IMG/VR virus record: IMGVR_UViG_3300011116_000471 | Span: 1 to 31,069 of that record | Direction: 5' to 3' (one strand) | DNA: 31,069 nucleotides | Origin: a virus | In this document: one piece after another, positions 1-25,667 of the stretch | How the letters are laid out: every line of letters starts with the position of its first letter | How positions within the stretch are numbered: the first letter of the stretch is position 1 | The notes under the pieces: generated by a model | Told to the model about the DNA's origin: nothing | Seen by the model: the letters and a program-made list of their open reading frames with translations, nothing else | Databases searched by the model: none | Translations under genes and position numbers: made by a program

Positions 1-83
1 TGTTTCAGCACCTATTAGATGAGCACAAGATGTCACAAGATTATGTAAATGGATGTCTTAATAACTTAAAGTTGTTCATCTGA
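1..83 (+). CDS. 3' end of an unknown gene (partial)
   Basis: An open frame runs in from the left edge (first full codon at base 3) and ends with TGA at 81-83. The last 26 residues read FQHLLDEHKMSQDYVNGCLN and then NLKLFI. The stop overlaps the start codon of the next gene as TGATG, the usual sign of a coupled operon on this strand. The fragment is too short to assign a family. Since the two following genes are a methyltransferase and a glycosyltransferase, it may belong to the same sugar or modification operon, but that is inference only. Confidence 0.5.
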   Translation, partial: FQHLLDEHKMSQDYVNGCLNNLKLFI

Positions 84-616
84 TGTTTCCTAATTGGTTT
101 AAAGATGTAGAGAAGTACTTCAGACATGTGCCAAGTGTTCCACTTCGTGCACTGCAGATCGGCACCTACACAGGCGATGCAACTGATTGGTTACTAAAGA
201 ATCGAGAGATTGAATTTATACATGATGTTGATACGTGGGAAGGCAGTGAAGAAGTCGCCCATGAGGTTCTTGATTTTGTTTCAGTAGAGGCATACTACGA
301 CTCAAGATTTAAAGAGAACAAGAAGGTAGTAAAGCACAAGATGACCAGTGATACCTTCTTCTGGAATAACAACAGGTCATATAACTTCATATACATAGAT
401 GGTGATCACACCGCTCTACAGACCGCTATTGATGGCTTGAATGGCTTCAGACACCTGGAATCAGGTGGGGTGATGGCATTTGATGACTACCTCTGGAACT
501 ACGGCGGAGGAGAGTACAGAGAGCCTAAGAGGGGCGTGGATTGCGTTCTTAATCTCTGTAAAGGCGAGTACACAATGATTGAGTCTGGTTATCAGGTGTG
601 GATTGAGAAGTGTTAG
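83..616 (+). CDS. Class I SAM-dependent methyltransferase-like protein (Methyltransf_24 type)
   Basis: The 177-residue protein has the layout of a small Rossmann-fold methyltransferase. A first strand and glycine loop (LQIGTYTGDATDWLL, about residues 23-37) is followed by an acidic strand end (HDVDTWEG) and the family signature YNFIYIDGDHTALQTAID near residues 99-114. A later strand, SGGVMAFDDYLW, follows. IDGDH followed by FDDY is typical of the methyltransferase 24 family, whose members often modify sugars or small molecules. The substrate cannot be read from the sequence. The start overlaps the upstream stop, and the end overlaps the next gene by 7 bases, so the three plus-strand genes are probably one operon. 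The genes lie beside the tail fibres, which suggests glycan or fibre modification. Confidence 0.75.
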   Translation: MFPNWFKDVEKYFRHVPSVPLRALQIGTYTGDATDWLLKNREIEFIHDVDTWEGSEEVAHEVLDFVSVEAYYDSRFKENKKVVKHKMTSDTFFWNNNRSYNFIYIDGDHTALQTAIDGLNGFRHLESGGVMAFDDYLWNYGGGEYREPKRGVDCVLNLCKGEYTMIESGYQVWIEKC

Positions 617-1341
617 ATAACGCCTGCTTTGAGGTCTTTCATACTGATACTGGAAATAAATTAAGAAACAAATCTTACGAGGGAATTTTAAATTCTATGT
701 CCTTCTTGCCACGCCTTGGCTCTCCTACTATGTACTTCAACACCGCTGATAAGGCTGAAGCATTTATTAATCAAACGCCAGAGTTTAAAGTAAACACAGT
801 TACTGACTTCTGTAAGCCAGGAGAGACCTTCCCACCATCCTCTGGAGTTGTAGGAGTTTGGGCAAGTACTTACTTGGCTTATAAAAAGTTTTTAGAATCT
901 GACAAAGATGTATTAATAATCTTTGAAGATGACATAGTCATAAGTAAAAATATTAAAACTATTGCTGAGATTTATATGGGTGAACTTATGCCTGTATGGG
1001 ATTTCTTTTCTCTTTTTGTTCCTGATGACTCACTCTTTGCATATAATGAATCTGAGCATGATTTAAGTGAAGAGCACATCTGCAAGTCCTATCAACAGTG
1101 GTCTTGTGCAGGGTATGCGGTAAGTAGACGTGGAGCAGAAAAAGCAATTGCAGATATTAAACTAAGAGGAATTAACTGCCCTATAGATTGGTATATATTT
1201 AACTTTAGAATGAAACAAGAAGAAAATCAAATGCGATTTAATACCTTTACAGTAAAACCACAAATATATAAACCTATAAAGTTCTTATCAGAAGCGGCTC
1301 AACACAGTCAGATTCACAACGGTAGTACAGAACTTCTTTAA
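610..1341 (+). CDS. Glycosyltransferase family 25-like protein
   Basis: The 243-residue protein starts with GTG at 610, with GAGAAG just upstream. The core LIIFEDDIVIS (about residues 102-112) carries the acidic EDD motif expected to bind the metal and nucleotide sugar. It is preceded by VGVWASTYLAYKKFL, and later comes CAGYAVSRRGAEKAI followed by PIDWYIF. That order (start-of-helix after VG, EDD, AGY, D-W) matches GT25 enzymes. The family includes lipooligosaccharide galactosyltransferases of bacteria and collagen galactosyltransferases of animals and giant viruses. The gene ends at the base next to the stop codon of a collagen-like fibre gene on the other strand. This makes the fibre a possible acceptor, but host glycans or DNA are alternatives. 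Confidence 0.75.
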   Translation: MLDNACFEVFHTDTGNKLRNKSYEGILNSMSFLPRLGSPTMYFNTADKAEAFINQTPEFKVNTVTDFCKPGETFPPSSGVVGVWASTYLAYKKFLESDKDVLIIFEDDIVISKNIKTIAEIYMGELMPVWDFFSLFVPDDSLFAYNESEHDLSEEHICKSYQQWSCAGYAVSRRGAEKAIADIKLRGINCPIDWYIFNFRMKQEENQMRFNTFTVKPQIYKPIKFLSEAAQHSQIHNGSTELL

Positions 1342-2694
1342 CTACATACCGCCATATAACAACACTGTGGTTGTTGGATCTGCAGCAACTTGTCCCTGAG
1401 TTCCCTGGGTTCCTTGGGTGCCGTTAGTTCCACCAATACCTTGTGTACCTAAAGTTCCTTGAGTACCTTGAGTACCTTGGCTACCAACAGTTCCTTGAGT
1501 ACCTTGAGCACCATTAGAACCAACAAATCCTGCAGTACCTTGAGTACCTTGGGCTCCATTAGACCCTACAAAGCCAGCAGTTCCTTGAGTACCAACACTT
1601 CCCTGAGCACCAACAGTGCCTTGAGCACCTGTGTCACCCTTGTCACCAGTACGAGCAAAGGTAATTAAAATATCATCAGAGTTAGATAATGTTCCATTTC
1701 CAGATACATAAGAACAACCAACTGTAAACCAACCAGTGTTATCTGTAAGAGAAGAGATTGTGTAAAGTGCAAAGACAGATGTATTTAATTTCTGTGATAC
1801 ACGGAAGTGTCCTTTAATAGTTGAAGTAGAGTCATCAATTGTGTTTAAAAATGAGGACAAGTTTGTTACAGAGTCATCGCTTGCATCAATGTACATGGCA
1901 GTTGCTGTTGTAGGAGATGCGTTAAATCTTAAGTTTCCAGTTCCTGGATCAGCATTAGTAGTACTTGTTAAGAATGTGTAATCAAAGGTGGCTCCACCAA
2001 AACTACCAACAGTACCTTGGCTACCAAATGTTCCTTGAGTTCCTGTAGTTCCTTGGCTACCAACAGTTCCCTGTGCACCAACAGTACCTTGTGCTCCAGT
2101 AGAACCATTTAAACCTTGAGTTCCTTGTGTACCTTGAGTTCCTTGTGTACCTTGAGTTCCCTGTGTTCCCTGTGTTCCTTGTGAACCAAATGTTCCTTGT
2201 GTTCCTGTAGTTCCTTGGCTACCAACAGTTCCTTGGGTTCCTTGAGTACCTTGGGTTCCCTGTGTTCCTATTGGTCCTTGTAATCCTTGTGTACCTTGAA
2301 TGCCCTGAGCGCCAGTAGTTCCTTGAGCGCCAGTAGTTCCTTGAACTTGAGTTACAGTTGTATTAATTACCTGTGTTCCAGCATCGTAAGTAAATGTAAT
2401 ACCTGTTTTACTGCCGCTATTTAAAGCGTTTGCAATACGGGAATTTGTAGCGTATTTATTTACAGTACCTTCAGAAAGATCATCTGTAGTACTTAATGCT
2501 GAACCTGAGATTAATAAAGCAATTGCATCTTCATCAAGAAAGTATGGCAAACTAGCATAAGTAGTAGTGCCATCACCAATTTTAAATTTATTATTTGTAG
2601 TGTCGTAGCAAACTTCACCAGCATATGGTGTTGGGTTATTTGCAGTCCATTGACCAGCGGTTCCTCGTCGTACTTGAATGCGTACTGATGACAT
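1342..2694 (-). CDS. Collagen-like tail fibre with Mtd-type N-terminal domain
   Basis: The 450-residue protein has four visible parts. Residues 1-55 hold the pattern IQVRRGTAGQWT, AGEVCYDTTNNKFKIGDG and SLPY, which matches the N-terminal domain found at the base of many phage tail fibres (named from the major tropism determinant). A first collagen-like block of Gly-X-Gln triplets covers about residues 117-230. A beta-rich domain of about 120 residues begins at FGGATFDYTF and ends at FARTGD. A second Gly-X-Gln block precedes a short C terminus. The inserted domain occurs twice more in the neighbouring fibre at 2979-5723. The start overlaps the previous stop as TAATG, with GGAGGAG upstream. It is probably a trimeric receptor-binding or fibre protein. 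The stop sits directly against the stop of the convergent GT25-like gene. Confidence 0.85.
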   Translation of the reverse strand: MSSVRIQVRRGTAGQWTANNPTPYAGEVCYDTTNNKFKIGDGTTTYASLPYFLDEDAIALLISGSALSTTDDLSEGTVNKYATNSRIANALNSGSKTGITFTYDAGTQVINTTVTQVQGTTGAQGTTGAQGIQGTQGLQGPIGTQGTQGTQGTQGTVGSQGTTGTQGTFGSQGTQGTQGTQGTQGTQGTQGTQGLNGSTGAQGTVGAQGTVGSQGTTGTQGTFGSQGTVGSFGGATFDYTFLTSTTNADPGTGNLRFNASPTTATAMYIDASDDSVTNLSSFLNTIDDSTSTIKGHFRVSQKLNTSVFALYTISSLTDNTGWFTVGCSYVSGNGTLSNSDDILITFARTGDKGDTGAQGTVGAQGSVGTQGTAGFVGSNGAQGTQGTAGFVGSNGAQGTQGTVGSQGTQGTQGTLGTQGIGGTNGTQGTQGTQGQVAADPTTTVLLYGGM

Positions 2695-2975
2695 TAAATT
2701 ACTCCTCCACCATCATAAGTAAGGGCATAGACATCTGACCCACCTGCTTCGTTTCCACCATCAATTGTTGCTGAATAAGAATCACTTCCTCCAGCCTCGT
2801 TTCCGCCTTCAAGTATATCTGCCTCTGCGTTAGTAACAATCTCAAACCATTGCACCCCATCAAATACAAACAGATTTTTTGCATCTGTGTTGTAGTAGAT
2901 ATCACCAGCGTACCTGCCAGTAGGCGCAGTGCCTACGGCAAGTACGTTAATAGGTACGAGGGCTCTTTTGCTCAT
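2694..2975 (-). CDS. Short tail-fibre-associated protein with GGNEAGGSD repeats
   Basis: The 93-residue protein lies between two fibre genes. The first half (ALVPINVLAVGTAPTGRYAG, then DIYYNT, LFVFDGVQWFEIV) resembles the N-terminal attachment domain of the larger fibre, which has P-x-x-G-x-x-Y-x-[DN]-T followed by a W-N/D-G segment. The second half is two copies of DGGNEAGGSD separated by about 10 residues and a third partial copy DGGG at the end. It ends in GGGVI with no further domain. It may be a short adaptor or a fibre whose shaft has been lost. The function is not known. It is followed by the 450-residue fibre with a one-base TAATG overlap. Confidence 0.7.
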   Translation of the reverse strand: MSKRALVPINVLAVGTAPTGRYAGDIYYNTDAKNLFVFDGVQWFEIVTNAEADILEGGNEAGGSDSYSATIDGGNEAGGSDVYALTYDGGGVI

Positions 2976-2978
2976 TTG

Positions 2979-5723
2979 TTAGGCTTTAACTACTACCCTG
3001 TATGTCTCACCTGATTGTGGAGCCACTGCAAATCCGATAGTTACAGCAGATGTAGTTGATGCAATTACATCAGTGACTACTTCGTTGTAGGTAGCGTCTT
3101 GTACAGTTACTAACACGTCTCGTGTTCCAAGACTGTGTGTAATTGTGAATGTTGTTGCTGAGTATGGAGATACTGGAGTAATAGTCTCTGCGTAAGTTCC
3201 AAGTTGACCAGAGGTACCTTGAGTACCAAGAGTTCCTTGGGTACCTTGAGTTCCAAGAGTTCCTTGTACACCTTGTGCACCAGTTGTACCTTGTACACCA
3301 GTAGCACCGTCTAGGTTAATTGACCATACAGCGTATGTTCCTGAACCTCGAACGTCATTGACGTTTACAACGAGTGTGTCAGTTCCTGATGTGTAACTTA
3401 CTACAGTGGCAGACATGTTGTTGTTTACATCGTAAGCAACTACTACGTCCTGACCTACTGAGTATGAAAGGTTTGGATCAGCCAGTACAAAACTTACGTT
3501 ATTTGCTACTGCAATTGAACGTGATGTTGTAGAGGTCGTCTTGTAGCGATCAGATTGTCCTTGAACACCTTGAGCACCAAGGGTACCTTGTACGCCCTGT
3601 GCACCCAGTGTTCCCTGTGTGCCTTGAGCACCAGTAGCACCTTGTGTACCTACAGTACCTTGGGATCCAACGGTACCCTGAGCACCAACAGTTCCTTGGC
3701 TACCAACAGTTCCTTGGCTACCAACAGTTCCTTGGCTACCAACAGTTCCTTGGCTACCAACAGTTCCTTGAGTACCTGTTGTGCCTTGGGTTCCATCTGT
3801 ACCTTGAGTACCTTGGGCTCCGAGTGTTCCTTGAACACCTTGGGTTCCTTGGCTACCGACTGTACCTTGAGTACCTGTTGTGCCTTGTGTACCTTGGGCA
3901 CCAGTGGTTCCTTGGGCTCCTAGTGTACCTTGGGTTCCTTGGCTACCGACTGTACCTTGTACGCCCTGGGCTCCAAGAGTACCTTGAGTACCTTGGGCTC
4001 CAACGTCACCAGTACGAGCAAAGGTGATTAAGACATCTTCATTATCAGCAAGTGTTCCGTTACCAGAAACAAACGCCACATCAATATCGAAGTATGTACT
4101 TTGATCTGTGATCGAAGAAATTGTATAAAGAGCAAACTTTGAAACATCAGTTCTCTTAGATACCTTTAAGTGACCCTTGATTGTTGATGTTGAATCATCA
4201 ATGGTCTGTAGGTAAGCATGGATGTCTGTGTTATCAATGTTGTTGTCATCAATACGAAGTACTGTTGCTGTACTTAATGCTGAGTTAAACTTAATGTAAG
4301 AATTATCTGGGGCGCTATTACTTGTAGCATTGTCATAGTAGTAGTTAAATGTAATACCACCAAATGAACCTTCAAGACCCTGTGCACCTTGAGTACCGTC
4401 TGTACCTTGAGTACCTTGGCTACCAACAGTTCCCTGTGCACCAATAGTACCTTGAGTACCTTGTGAACCTACAGTTCCTTGAACTCCTTGAGAACCTAAA
4501 GTTCCCTGAGTTCCTTGTGAACCAACACTTCCTTGAACGCCTTGGGTTCCATCTGTACCTTGAGTACCTTGGGCTCCGAGTGTTCCTTGAGAACCTACTG
4601 CACCCTGTGTACCAAGAGTACCTTGAGATCCTACAGTTCCTTGTGAACCAACAGTTCCCTGTGAACCAACGGTTCCTTGTGTACCTTGAGATCCAACAGT
4701 TCCCTGTGCACCGAGAGTACCTTGTGTACCTTGAGAACCTACAGTTCCTTGTACGCCTTGCGCTCCATCAGTACCTTGTGTACCTTGAGCACCGACATCA
4801 CCAGTACGAGCAAATGTAAAGAGTACTGCGTCTCCATTAGTAAAGGTTCCGTTACCAGATACGTAAGCAACATCTATATCAAACCAGTTTGGTGCCGAAT
4901 CTGTGAGACCAGAAATTGTGTAGAGTGCAAAGACAGATGCATCAAATTTCTTAGATACCTTTACGTGACCCTTAATTGTTGATGTTGAATCATCAATGGT
5001 CTGTAAGAAGTTAGAGATATCGTAGTTACCATCAGCAGGATTGTCATCTAGTGCGATGTGTGAAACTAAAGTTAAGTTAGCATTATTTAGACGAGCATTG
5101 TTGTCGCCTGGGTCTGCCATAGTTGTGTTATTAGAGTAGTTGTATCCAACTGTAATACCACCAAATGAACCTTCAGTACCTTGTGTACCTTGAATTCCAT
5201 CAAGACCTTGCGCTCCTGCAGTACCTTGTGTACCTTGCGCTCCTAAAGTTCCTTGTGTGCCCTGTGCACCAAGAGTACCTTGTGTACCTTGAGAACCTAC
5301 AGTTCCTTGAACTCCTTGAGAACCTACTGCACCTTGTGCACCCAAAGTTCCTTGAGTACCTTGAGCACCATTAGAACCATCTAAACCTTGTGCACCAGCA
5401 GTTCCTTGTGAACCTACTGTGCCTTGTGAGCCAACTGTTCCTTGTGAACCTACTGTGCCTTGAGCACCTACTGCTCCTTGTGTACCAAGTGTTCCTTGTG
5501 CACCAAGAGTACCTTGAGTACCTTGTGCTCCAGTAGTTCCTTGGCTACCTTGGCTTGCATTAATCCATGCACTGCCATTCCATGTGCGTAGGTATCCTAG
5601 TACTGTGTCAAAATAAACTTGACCAACTGCGGGAGATGCTGGGGCGGTTGCTAAGTTTTGTATTCTTGCATTTTGTAATTCTAATTTATTTAAATCAATT
5701 GGGGTTAAAAACTTACGGGCCAT
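2979..5723 (-). CDS. Large collagen-like tail fibre (914 residues)
   Basis: The N terminus (LTPIDLNKLELQNARIQNLA, then VGQVYFDTVLGYLRTWNGSAW) is a fibre attachment domain. Long Gly-X-Gln shafts follow, with codes such as GTQ, GSQ, GAQ and GTV, at about bases 5175-5553, 4369-4800, 3550-4007 and 3204-3306. Two beta-rich inserts that start FGGIT and end FARTGD interrupt the shafts at about 4800-5169 and 4008-4368. Both share the sentence TIDDSTSTIKGH with the insert of the 450-residue fibre. The last 70 residues contain FTITHSLGTRDVLVTVQD, a common phage tail module with H-x-LG that also occurs at 5737-6051. GGAG precedes the ATG. Collagen triplets here lack proline almost entirely, so the trimer must be stabilised differently from animal collagen. 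It is probably the main host-contact fibre. Confidence 0.88.
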   Translation of the reverse strand: MARKFLTPIDLNKLELQNARIQNLATAPASPAVGQVYFDTVLGYLRTWNGSAWINASQGSQGTTGAQGTQGTLGAQGTLGTQGAVGAQGTVGSQGTVGSQGTVGSQGTAGAQGLDGSNGAQGTQGTLGAQGAVGSQGVQGTVGSQGTQGTLGAQGTQGTLGAQGTQGTAGAQGLDGIQGTQGTEGSFGGITVGYNYSNNTTMADPGDNNARLNNANLTLVSHIALDDNPADGNYDISNFLQTIDDSTSTIKGHVKVSKKFDASVFALYTISGLTDSAPNWFDIDVAYVSGNGTFTNGDAVLFTFARTGDVGAQGTQGTDGAQGVQGTVGSQGTQGTLGAQGTVGSQGTQGTVGSQGTVGSQGTVGSQGTLGTQGAVGSQGTLGAQGTQGTDGTQGVQGSVGSQGTQGTLGSQGVQGTVGSQGTQGTIGAQGTVGSQGTQGTDGTQGAQGLEGSFGGITFNYYYDNATSNSAPDNSYIKFNSALSTATVLRIDDNNIDNTDIHAYLQTIDDSTSTIKGHLKVSKRTDVSKFALYTISSITDQSTYFDIDVAFVSGNGTLADNEDVLITFARTGDVGAQGTQGTLGAQGVQGTVGSQGTQGTLGAQGTTGAQGTQGTTGTQGTVGSQGTQGVQGTLGAQGTQGTDGTQGTTGTQGTVGSQGTVGSQGTVGSQGTVGSQGTVGAQGTVGSQGTVGTQGATGAQGTQGTLGAQGVQGTLGAQGVQGQSDRYKTTSTTSRSIAVANNVSFVLADPNLSYSVGQDVVVAYDVNNNMSATVVSYTSGTDTLVVNVNDVRGSGTYAVWSINLDGATGVQGTTGAQGVQGTLGTQGTQGTLGTQGTSGQLGTYAETITPVSPYSATTFTITHSLGTRDVLVTVQDATYNEVVTDVIASTTSAVTIGFAVAPQSGETYRVVVKA
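3685..3770. repeat. Perfect 18-bp tandem repeat inside the fibre shaft
   Basis: The 18-base unit CCAACAGTTCCTTGGCTA occurs four times in a row without a mismatch (3685-3756) and continues for 14 further bases. It encodes the six-residue unit GTVGSQ on the minus strand. Since 18 is a multiple of three, gain or loss of units changes shaft length without breaking the frame. Less perfect versions of the same unit appear throughout both fibre genes. Confidence 0.9.
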
Positions 5724-14206: not shown

Positions 14207-14450
14207 CGTAAGTAACTTCCCGCCTTCCTAATGCAGTACTTAATGCTTCCTCTTCATCTTTCATTCCGCTCCACGCTCCAAACACTAACGCTTTGTATCT
14301 AGGTAAGCGTACTATAAGTGGGGTAGATGTGCGATATGGAGGTTCAATCTCCTGTGTCCAACCACGAACAATAAATTTAAAGCCCCATTTAAAAGGGAAG
14401 TTTGTTAGTTGTACAAATGGTTTTGATCCGATTTTGTGAGCCTTTGGCAT
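14052..14450 (-). CDS. Unknown phage protein
   Basis: The 132-residue protein begins MPKAHKIGSKPFVQLTNFPF and carries a beta-rich N-terminal half (KWGFKFIVRGWTQEIEPPYR) and an acidic C-terminal half. I do not recognise it. It starts at the base where the KTSC-like gene ends (TAATG), so the two are coupled. A conserved-looking W-x-x-x-K-D-E-E cluster (GAWSGMKDEEEAL) is the only distinctive motif. The overlap with the next frame at 13964-14206 is unusually long, so one of the two starts is probably wrong. Confidence 0.6.
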   Translation of the reverse strand: MPKAHKIGSKPFVQLTNFPFKWGFKFIVRGWTQEIEPPYRTSTPLIVRLPRYKALVFGAWSGMKDEEEALSTALGRREVTYDDFTEEAGWTPAPDSDREASIDNLYSRFDFMDGAVDVYDWQTYHDLAKTTE

Positions 14451-15205
14451 TATGTCCTTTTCTTAGACTGACGTCCTCCGTAGTGTAACTGAGCGGCACG
14501 AGTAAACTTGTAAAACGTCTTTCTTGCATTAGCAGATAGAGTAGAGACATCAGCAGCACCACGAGGTTTGTAATCTAAGAAGGTGTAGATGTACTGACCT
14601 TTAGAGACTACGGACTTAAATTTTTGCCATTCACCAGGCGTTACTTCGTAGTAATTGTAGAAGGTTCCGTCTCTAAACACAACTGTGATTACTTGACGAT
14701 CTCTATCATATCCAGCGGCAACTGTTCGTGGTCGTGCTGGATTAGATGTACTAGTTGGAACAACTGTTATGGGTGCAGGAGCCTCAGACTCTCCAAATTG
14801 AGGACCTTTCTCACCTGGCACAATTAACTCACCAGTATCATCATCAACATCGTATGACTGACGATAGGCAGATCTATCAACAAAATTTCCATCTTTATCT
14901 ACGTAGTAGACATCACTATCAATATTAGGGGCTAATGCCTCTCCTGCTAAATTTGCAACTTTTTTTGTTCCAGTGTAATAACGCATCGTATCATTGGCTT
15001 TAGTTAAAGAGATAAATTCACTAAATTCACCAACAGAACTTGCAGTTGGAAGTCCAGCAAATATGCCAGCACCAGATCCAGTTATTTTAGAAATACCTGA
15101 AGTTTGTTTAGAGCCTAACCCGTAGAAGGCTCCAAGTAATTCTTGAGCAGACGGAAGAGCAGCCCGTCTGTTACGGGATGCTCCTCCACCTGACACTCTT
15201 GCCAT
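14450..15205 (-). CDS. Protein with C-terminal KTSC-like domain
   Basis: The 251-residue protein has a long N-terminal region of low order and a well-marked C-terminal domain. From about residue 161 the pattern RTVAAGYDRDRQVITVVFRD, GTFYNYYEVTPGEWQKFKSV and SKGQYIYTFLDY follows the KTSC-domain layout. In that layout an initial strand with a Y-D pair is followed by V-x-F-x-x-G-x-x-Y-x-Y and then helix and G-x-Y/F. KTSC domains occur in lysyl-tRNA synthetases and as short phage or plasmid proteins, with unclear function. Here it lies in the head region upstream of the terminase. A GG-rich N terminus (RVSGGGASRNRR) is basic. It is coupled to the next gene by a one-base overlap. Confidence 0.65.
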   Translation of the reverse strand: MARVSGGGASRNRRAALPSAQELLGAFYGLGSKQTSGISKITGSGAGIFAGLPTASSVGEFSEFISLTKANDTMRYYTGTKKVANLAGEALAPNIDSDVYYVDKDGNFVDRSAYRQSYDVDDDTGELIVPGEKGPQFGESEAPAPITVVPTSTSNPARPRTVAAGYDRDRQVITVVFRDGTFYNYYEVTPGEWQKFKSVVSKGQYIYTFLDYKPRGAADVSTLSANARKTFYKFTRAAQLHYGGRQSKKRT

Positions 15206-23686: not shown

Positions 23687-23727
23687 AGTAACTTTTATAA
23701 AGTGTGATGTATCCCACAAAAGTTACT
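23687..23727 (-). other. Inverted repeat at the 3' end of the HslV-like gene
   Basis: AGTAACTTTT (23687-23696) and AAAAGTTACT (23718-23727) are perfect ten-base inverted copies, and the right arm contains the stop codon of the HslV-like gene. Inner GTG/CAC can extend the hairpin. No T-run follows on the minus strand, so it is more like an end-stabilising hairpin than a classical terminator. The rest of the gap 23514-23686 has A/T-rich sequence with no clear promoter. Confidence 0.5.
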
Positions 23728-24268
23728 TAAGTTGTTCTTTCTCAATGTATGGACCTGAAGTAAAGGCTGTGAGTTTTGCAGCAATCTCCATAGCCTTCAT
23801 TGGTTTAGCACCAGCATGCAGAGCACCCAATGCATAGGAAGCACCAGAACCAACTGCGTAGGTTCCATCCATACTTCTCATAACAGCCAAATCTTGATCA
23901 ATATCAAATAGTTCACCACCAACAGCCATTAAGAATTGGAATCGTAATCCTTCTTTTGATTTGTCGTGGTCTTCATTAAAGTCATATCCATTTTCAGTTA
24001 AACACTTTCTAAGGGAAGGCATAGCCTTAGCAATCATAAAGTGATAGATGTCTTTAGAATCTTTGGCAGTTAATTTTGGCGGATTCCAGATGTGTTGAGC
24101 AATATCGCAAGGAGACACTTCTCCAGAACCAGCAATTAAAAAATCGCCACGTTCTGTAAGTTTTGCCATCTGTGGATGGCGGTAAATACGACCGCTATCA
24201 TCTGTTACTTGATTGTCGGCAAGTAAGAGGCAACGATCTTCGTATTGAACTCCAATGATTGTTGTCAT
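23723..24268 (-). CDS. HslV/20S proteasome-like Ntn hydrolase subunit
   Basis: The 181-residue protein matches the HslV-type plan of the proteasome family. It starts MTTIIGVQYEDRCLLLADNQ, with Thr directly after Met as in E. coli HslV, so removal of Met would expose the catalytic Thr. A later DGTYAVGSGASYALGALHAG resembles the G-S-G-x-x-Y/F-A motif, and KAMEIAAKLTAFTSGPYIEK resembles the late helix. HslV is about 175 residues, so the length fits. No HslU-like ATPase gene is in the window. It lies between the endolysin and a hairpin. Roles could be host-protein turnover, maturation of phage proteins, or interference with the host proteasome. It has a good AAGGGG ribosome site. Confidence 0.75.
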   Translation of the reverse strand: MTTIIGVQYEDRCLLLADNQVTDDSGRIYRHPQMAKLTERGDFLIAGSGEVSPCDIAQHIWNPPKLTAKDSKDIYHFMIAKAMPSLRKCLTENGYDFNEDHDKSKEGLRFQFLMAVGGELFDIDQDLAVMRSMDGTYAVGSGASYALGALHAGAKPMKAMEIAAKLTAFTSGPYIEKEQLK

Positions 24269-25133: not shown

Positions 25134-25667
25134 ATGGCAAAAATAGTAGAACTAACAAAAGATGAAATTAGAATCTGTGCTCAACTAGGCATGGAGCGCT
25201 GGCTATTAAAGTGGGGCAGTATAGACCGCCCAAACTATGCAGAGGGCAAACGTCAGGGTTGGCTTGAGTTTGAACTAAATGCAAACATCAGATCAAATGT
25301 CGCAGAGTATGCGGTGGCTAAACTTTATAAGATGCCTTGGACTGTTCCTTGGTATACAAATGAGGAGCATAAGAACCGAATTAATCACCCCGATGTTGGA
25401 AGTAACTTAGAGGTGCGTTGCGTCAGAACCAAGGATGCAATACCTGTGTGGAGCAAGGATGTAAATAAGGACGCCATAATTGTTGGCACAAGAATTCACG
25501 ACCTAGAGTATTTCTCTGCAGTAGAGATATATGGCTGGCTACCAGTATCAGAGTGTCAGAGAGATGAGTGGTGGTCACAAGAGAAATCAGGAAATTGCTG
25601 GAGAGTTCCAGTAGAGGAGTTTAGGGATTCGATTCCAGACGACTCATTAATGTCTTTGCACGTCTAG
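25134..25667 (+). CDS. Possible PD-(D/E)XK-like nuclease-fold protein
   Basis: The 177-residue plus-strand protein lies divergently from the endolysin with 49 bases between starts. Its middle carries AEYAVAKLYKMPWTVPWYTN (a helix with Glu), then NHPDVGSNLEVRCVRTKD, followed by a strand AIIVGTRIHD. The order helix with E, then D-V-G ... L-E-V-R, resembles a PD-(D/E)XK nuclease core, a pattern seen in uncharacterised phage proteins of actinobacteria. The Lys of E-x-K is replaced by Arg, so catalysis is uncertain. A TAGGTT hexamer six bases before ATG could drive a leaderless message. Its 3' end overlaps the end of the Cys-His-Asp gene by 47 bases on the opposite strand. Confidence 0.6.
   Translation: MAKIVELTKDEIRICAQLGMERWLLKWGSIDRPNYAEGKRQGWLEFELNANIRSNVAEYAVAKLYKMPWTVPWYTNEEHKNRINHPDVGSNLEVRCVRTKDAIPVWSKDVNKDAIIVGTRIHDLEYFSAVEIYGWLPVSECQRDEWWSQEKSGNCWRVPVEEFRDSIPDDSLMSLHV

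What the first reader, a model, noticed from the sequence alone, without database searches (positions are those of the whole stretch)
610..2694. GT25-like glycosyltransferase gene placed directly against a collagen-like fibre gene
GT25 enzymes include collagen galactosyltransferases. Here a GT25-like gene (EDD motif) is convergent with a Gly-X-Gln fibre gene, and the two stop codons are adjacent at 1339-1341 and 1342-1344. The fibre repeats are rich in Thr and Ser at the X position, possible O-glycosylation sites. A methyltransferase overlaps the GT25 gene and could cap the sugar. This suggests glycosylation of phage collagen to vary or shield the fibre, but other acceptors are possible.
Basis: partly seen in the sequence, partly recalled or inferred. 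Interest (0 to 1): 0.62.

Follow-up and report, generated by a model that had tools for sequence, protein, structure and literature searches.

The report
Phage sugar genes beside collagen-like fibres
A group of lake viruses that infect bacteria carries a small set of sugar-attaching and methylating genes, ending in a relative of the enzyme that puts sugar on animal collagen, which usually lies right next to a collagen-like tail-fibre gene; this suggests, but does not prove, that the viruses coat their own fibres with sugar.

Summary
A GT25 gene (610-1341, +; EDD at residues 106-108) meets a collagen-like fibre gene (1342-2694, -) stop against stop, and a methyltransferase overlaps its start. 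The model of the GT25 protein best matches a domain of human collagen galactosyltransferase COLGALT1. Complete relatives show a four- or five-gene cassette: GH130-like protein, TPR protein, methyltransferase, sometimes an ATP-grasp protein, then GT25. Among relatives at least 55% identical, 49 of 58 sequence clusters have a collagen-like gene as the next gene (44 convergent, 5 co-directional with a different fibre). More distant GT25 relatives have none (0 of 42). In less redundant clusters it is 13 of 18, against about 3 expected. Most of this is one inherited arrangement, and some members end at fibronectin- or glycine-rich fibres instead. Threonine richness is not special to these phages, lysine is nearly absent, and many related phages have collagen without GT25. 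The enzyme is therefore not a hydroxylysine-type collagen galactosyltransferase. Best reading: a fibre-linked glycosylation and methylation cassette, with collagen Thr/Ser the likeliest acceptor but unproven. New variant of a known kind.

The parts
3..83 (+). 3' end of the TPR-protein gene of the same operon (cut by the window edge; about 187 aa in complete relatives)
   Evidence: Reading frame ends TGA at 81-83 and matches the C-terminus of the TPR proteins of L002 and others
83..616 (+). SAM-dependent methyltransferase (Methyltransf_24), 177 aa
   Evidence: Pfam PF13578 E 3e-11; conserved between TPR and GT25 in relatives
610..1341 (+). GT25-type glycosyltransferase, 243 aa
   Evidence: Pfam PF01755 E 1.9e-7; PHROG 16010 E 4.8e-13; AF2 pLDDT 82.9; best fold match COLGALT1 residues 337-574, Z 18.2
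925..933 (+). EDD motif (residues 106-108), putative metal and nucleotide-sugar site
   Evidence: E106 and D108 invariant, D107 nearly so, in 36 relatives down to 23% identity
1339..1344 (.). Abutting stop codons of the GT25 gene (+) and the fibre gene (-)
   Evidence: TAACTA; 0-nt gap repeated in 24 of 44 clusters
1342..2694 (-). Collagen-like tail-fibre gene with Mtd-type N-terminal domain, 450 aa (likeliest acceptor)
   Evidence: PF01391 E 4.6e-29, PF18454 Mtd_N E 1.8e-14; tail-fibre PHROGs
2694..2975 (-). Small fibre-associated gene, 93 aa, between the two fibre genes
   Evidence: Weak PHROG tail-fibre hit; conserved in place in relatives
2979..5723 (-). Second collagen-like fibre gene, 914 aa (other possible acceptor)
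   Evidence: PF01391 E 4.9e-67; X position Thr 52%, Y position Gln 57%

Best explanation
The genes at 3-1341 are the distal part of a phage operon (GH130-like protein, TPR protein, methyltransferase, GT25) that builds and O-methylates a short glycan on the phage's own tail fibres. The GT25 enzyme most likely adds a hexose from a nucleotide sugar. The likeliest acceptor is Thr/Ser at the X position of the collagen-like repeats of the fibre encoded next door, or a sugar already attached there. The TPR protein would hold the fibre substrate and the methyltransferase would cap the sugar. The coat would stiffen, protect or vary the fibre. Shown: gene identities, operon, conserved place, GT25 fold (predicted). 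Inferred: donor, acceptor, role of each partner, benefit.
For: GT25 by Pfam and PHROGs; model pLDDT 82.9 with best fold match COLGALT1 C-terminal GT domain, Z 18.2 over 220 residues, then mimivirus R655 Z 16.3 and bacterial beta-1,4-galactosyltransferases Z 14. Full cassette in relatives (in 51 of 51 clusters with enough upstream sequence). Next gene collagen-like in 49 of 58 clusters; 13 of 18 coarser clusters versus 3.1 expected, 0 of 18 at the other end of the cassette. A separate clade is co-directional with a different collagen fibre. The same core lies between a collagen-like gene and a tail-fibre gene in cyanophage DSL-LC02. Precedents: SgtA glycosylates Thr in the collagen-like region of C. 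difficile BclA3 from the gene next door (PMC7157674); mimivirus L230 glucosylates viral collagen peptides (PMC9614988).
Against: Clusters share ancestry, and the tree needs only a few changes of neighbour state, so most of the adjacency may be one inherited event. Some GT25 cassettes end at fn3 or Gly-rich fibres. Many related phages have collagen fibres without GT25. Thr content barely differs between phages with and without the cassette. Distant GT25 homologues sit in unrelated contexts. The fibre region may simply be a cargo insertion site.
Confidence: 0.45

Rival explanations
1. The cassette modifies another virion protein (fn3 or Gly-rich fibres, baseplate or capsid proteins), and the collagen gene is a neighbour only because all fibre genes lie there.
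For: Cassettes with fn3 or Gly-rich neighbours exist (L063, L078, L216, L363); FkbM-type cassettes have collagen next door in only 7 of 27 clusters; mycobacteriophage virions carry glycans on capsid and tail tube (Freeman 2023 as cited in PMC12619734).
Against: The GT25 end is collagen in 13 of 18 clusters against about 3 expected.
Confidence: 0.22
2. The cassette changes host surface glycans during infection, for example to block superinfection or release progeny from receptors.
For: Bacterial GT25 enzymes build LPS/LOS (Pfam description); cell-wall glycosylation against superinfection is proposed for glycosyltransferases of Nanopelagicales phages (PMC10202952); the cassette lies on the strand opposite the late genes, so it could be expressed at another time.
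Against: Location inside the fibre module across distant phages, including a cyanophage; no relative of this GT25 found in the held bacterial genomes, although one pattern-based scan is weak evidence.
Confidence: 0.2
3. The cassette glycosylates phage DNA to evade nucleases.
For: Suggested for glycosyltransferases of Nanopelagicales phages (PMC10202952); the distant Streptomyces-phage GT25 pair lies among replication genes in one phage.
Against: No base-hydroxylating or DNA-modifying partner was recognised in the cassette; it lies among fibre genes; the closest folds act on proteins or sugars.
Confidence: 0.06
4. GT25 works as a true collagen galactosyltransferase on hydroxylysine.
For: Closest fold is COLGALT1.
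Against: Lys is about 0.5% of X and Y positions; no 2OG oxygenase hit in 9 of 10 related records; single GT domain.
Confidence: 0.02

Closest known systems
Human COLGALT1 (GLT25D1), C-terminal GT domain
   Same: Best fold match (Z 18.2, 220 residues, 3.3 A) and profile match E 5.5e-6; EDD motif
   Different: Phage enzyme has one domain, no N-terminal DXD domain; fibre nearly lacks Lys; about 13% identity
Bacterial GT25 beta-1,4-galactosyltransferases (8xlz, 8xc8)
   Same: Single GT25 domain, best sequence-profile match in the PDB (E 1.1e-7)
   Different: Those are annotated as sugar-chain galactosyltransferases; the phage gene sits in a fibre-linked cassette; about 16% identity
Mimivirus L230 and R655 (virus GT25 enzymes)
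   Same: Virus-encoded GT25; L230 glucosylates viral collagen peptides and has an EDD at the same residue numbers, 106-108 (PMC9614988); R655 Z 16.3
   Different: L230 is fused to a lysyl hydroxylase and acts on Lys; these phages show neither feature
C. difficile SgtA-BclA3
   Same: Glycosyltransferase gene beside its collagen-like substrate, O-linked to Thr (PMC7157674)
   Different: Adds GlcNAc to GPT repeats on a spore protein; whether SgtA shares any family with this enzyme was not tested here
Mycobacteriophage virion glycosylation
   Same: Phage glycans on virion proteins (Freeman 2023 as cited in PMC12619734)
   Different: Capsid and tail-tube C-termini are modified, not collagen-like fibres
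Cyanophage DSL-LC02 cassette (OR032571)
   Same: GH130-like plus TPR-methyltransferase genes set against the strand of a collagen-like gene and a tail-fibre gene
   Different: FkbM and radical-SAM domains instead of Methyltransf_24 and GT25

Membership tests
Glycosyltransferase family 25 (PF01755) | Profile score above the curated cut-off | tested here: met
   31.6 bits versus 24, although only profile positions 65-189 match
Glycosyltransferase family 25 (PF01755) | GT-A fold of GT25 type with EDD/DXD motif | tested here: met
   AF2 pLDDT 82.9; top fold matches are GT25 enzymes; EDD conserved to 23% identity
Glycosyltransferase family 25 (PF01755) | Sugar transfer activity | not testable with these tools
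   needs an assay
Collagen galactosyltransferase (COLGALT) | Two GT domains with an essential N-terminal DXD motif (166-168) | tested here: not met
   243 aa, single domain; matches only COLGALT1 337-574; motif essential in PMC3244457
Collagen galactosyltransferase (COLGALT) | Essential RMQV stretch after the second DXD motif | tested here: not met
   Corresponding region reads VPDDSLFAY (alignments); motif from PMC3244457
Collagen galactosyltransferase (COLGALT) | Hydroxylysine acceptor available | tested here: not met
   Lys about 0.5% of X and Y positions; no PF13640 hit in 9 of 10 related records, other oxygenase families not searched
Phage collagen-like tail fibre | Long Gly-X-Y runs plus tail-fibre attachment domain | tested here: met
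   PF01391 and Mtd_N; tail-fibre PHROGs
GH130 / beta-mannosyltransferase-like (cassette partner, not in window) | Profile score above the curated cut-off | tested here: not met
   17.8 bits versus 26 for L002; homologues in cyanophages are annotated beta-mannosyltransferase
Virion glycosylation system | Glycan on a virion protein | not testable with these tools
   needs virion mass spectrometry

The most novel reading that the evidence does not exclude
A bacteriophage system dedicated to O-glycosylating and methylating a collagen triple-helix fibre on Thr/Ser with a GT25 enzyme related in fold to animal collagen galactosyltransferase: a hydroxylysine-independent route to glycosylated collagen, widespread in freshwater phages.
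Probability: 0.3. Interest if true: 0.78.

Novelty: new variant of a known kind. Interest (0 to 1): 0.52.

Why it matters
If true, it would be the first case I know of where a tailed phage glycosylates its own collagen-like fibres, with an enzyme of the fold that glycosylates animal collagen. It would give a genetic route to glycosylated collagen without lysyl hydroxylation, explain why fibres of abundant lake phages keep Thr-rich repeats next to sugar genes, and make phage fibre glycosylation testable in the freshwater actinobacteria that are the likely hosts. The comparison also offers natural controls: related phages with the same kind of fibre but no GT25, and cassettes that carry an FkbM methyltransferase instead.

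Tried and rejected
(1) First AF2 model from 17 close relatives failed (pLDDT 36.7); a wider alignment fixed it. (2) Co-occurrence in close relatives alone was set aside as weak, because they inherit the order; base rates, the opposite end of the cassette, distant homologues and a tree were used instead. (3) Thr richness as a signature of glycosylation: not distinctive. (4) Hydroxylysine-type glycosylation: rejected. (5) Search for relatives in bacterial genomes: none confirmed; pattern-based, so weak. (6) Promoter and terminator scans at the locus: no more than in shuffles. (7) Exact match of the second DXD of COLGALT1 with the DWD seen in many relatives (VWD in the window): suggestive only; the profile alignment places it two residues off, so it is not claimed. 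(8) PDB profile search with the GH130-like protein gave only weak lectin matches.

Full report
What is there. The window is a 31,069-base virus record from IMG/VR with a portal protein, terminase, major head protein and CHAP endolysin. Its left end holds, on the + strand, the tail of a TPR-protein gene (3-83), a Methyltransf_24 gene (83-616) and a GT25 gene (610-1341). Against it, on the - strand, run the fibre genes: a 450-aa fibre with an Mtd-type N-terminus and collagen repeats (1342-2694), a 93-aa gene (2694-2975) and a 914-aa collagen-like fibre (2979-5723). The stop codons abut exactly (TAACTA at 1339-1344).

What the enzyme is. Pfam scores it above the GT25 cut-off, though only over profile positions 65-189. 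With an alignment of 36 relatives AlphaFold2 gives a confident model, pLDDT 82.9. Its best structural matches are the C-terminal GT domain of human COLGALT1 (Z 18.2, 220 residues, 3.3 A), mimivirus R655 (16.3) and bacterial GT25 beta-1,4-galactosyltransferases (14.0); profile searches agree. E106, D108 and nearly D107 of the EDD motif are conserved to 23% identity. It is a GT25 member but not a COLGALT: it lacks the N-terminal GT domain with the essential DXD and the RMQV stretch that COLGALT1 needs (PMC3244457).

The operon. In complete relatives the + strand block is a GH130-like protein (333 aa), a TPR protein (187 aa), the methyltransferase, in some phages an ATP-grasp protein (280 aa), and GT25. 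The GH130 hit is below Pfam's cut-off, but one cyanophage homologue at 46% identity is annotated beta-mannosyltransferase.

Is the collagen link real? In 80 close relatives almost all keep methyltransferase, GT25 and a convergent collagen-like fibre, but that is expected from descent. Harder tests: (a) Over a wider range, clusters at least 55% identical have a collagen-like gene as next gene in 49 of 58; clusters under 40% identical in 0 of 42, including Streptomyces phages where the homologue lies beside another glycosyltransferase and a nucleotidyltransferase. (b) In 90% clusters of the GH130-like protein, cassettes ending in GT25 have collagen next in 13 of 18 against 3.1 expected from the local share of collagen genes (20,000 simulations, maximum 11) and in 0 of 18 at the other end; cassettes ending in an FkbM methyltransferase have 7 of 27, TPR-only cassettes 1 of 10. 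(c) One clade carries the cassette co-directionally, 33 nt before a different collagen-like fibre; neighbouring fibres have at least four kinds of N-terminus. (d) The tree needs only a few changes of neighbour state, so the simulation overstates independence. (e) Exceptions are real: fn3 or Gly-rich fibre arrays, led in some cases by a small gene, follow GT25 in L063, L078, L216 and L363, and a 178-aa gene lies between GT25 and the collagen gene in L362, L364 and L368. (f) Many related phages have collagen genes and no GT25. (g) An unrelated cyanophage, DSL-LC02, has the GH130-like and TPR-methyltransferase genes set between a collagen-like gene and a tail-fibre gene.

Acceptor sites. Thr or Ser fills X in 61% of triplets in cassette phages and 53% in relatives without a cassette (P = 0.07), so Thr richness is a trait of these fibres in general. 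Lys is about 0.5% of X and Y positions, and a 2OG-Fe(II) oxygenase is found in only one of ten GT25-bearing records. Hydroxylysine chemistry is therefore very unlikely; O-linkage to Thr/Ser is the chemically open route and has a precedent in SgtA-BclA3 (PMC7157674).

Conclusion. The best-supported statement is that this is a fibre-linked glycosylation and methylation cassette whose GT25-bearing form has settled mainly at collagen-like fibre genes. That the collagen repeats are the acceptor is plausible (about 0.3-0.35) but unproven. Host: low-GC freshwater actinobacteria are likely, inferred from base composition and from Streptomyces-phage capsid relatives (61.8% identity), not shown.

Noticed in passing
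L008 2381-3223, L025 9169-10011, L047 3990-4835: An ATP-grasp ligase gene (carbamoyl-phosphate-synthase-like) is present or absent between the methyltransferase and GT25 in otherwise closely similar cassettes; its role is unknown.
   Followed up: partly
L395 8539-9201, L404 3062-3736 and others: A large sister group of cassettes has an FkbM methyltransferase in place of Methyltransf_24 and GT25; the convergent neighbour is in some cases a very long collagen-like gene (55-145 triplets).
   Followed up: yes
L140 1-1578: The terminase large subunit looks interrupted by an intein-like sequence (CLVPTTKVLTSDLQYVEIGSVKVGDTLVGF).
   Followed up: no
window 23723-24268 (-): HslV/proteasome-like peptidase (PHROG 1040 E 7e-27; weak Pfam Proteasome match).
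   Followed up: no
window 14450-15205 (-): Protein with a C-terminal KTSC domain (E 4.6e-12).
   Followed up: no
window 25134-25667 (+): A second gene against the main coding strand, next to the endolysin; matches only PHROG 18407 of unknown function.
   Followed up: no
L063 9064-12864, L065 5449-11013: fn3/Gly-rich fibre gene arrays inserted between GT25 and the collagen fibre (L063) or beside GT25 (L065), apparently a hot spot for fibre-gene exchange.
   Followed up: partly
L305-L346 (for example L310 7221-8696): A distant GT25 group in about 490-aa proteins, mostly flanked by two Methyltransf_24-like genes, with no collagen nearby: GT25 plus this methyltransferase may be an older pair.
   Followed up: partly
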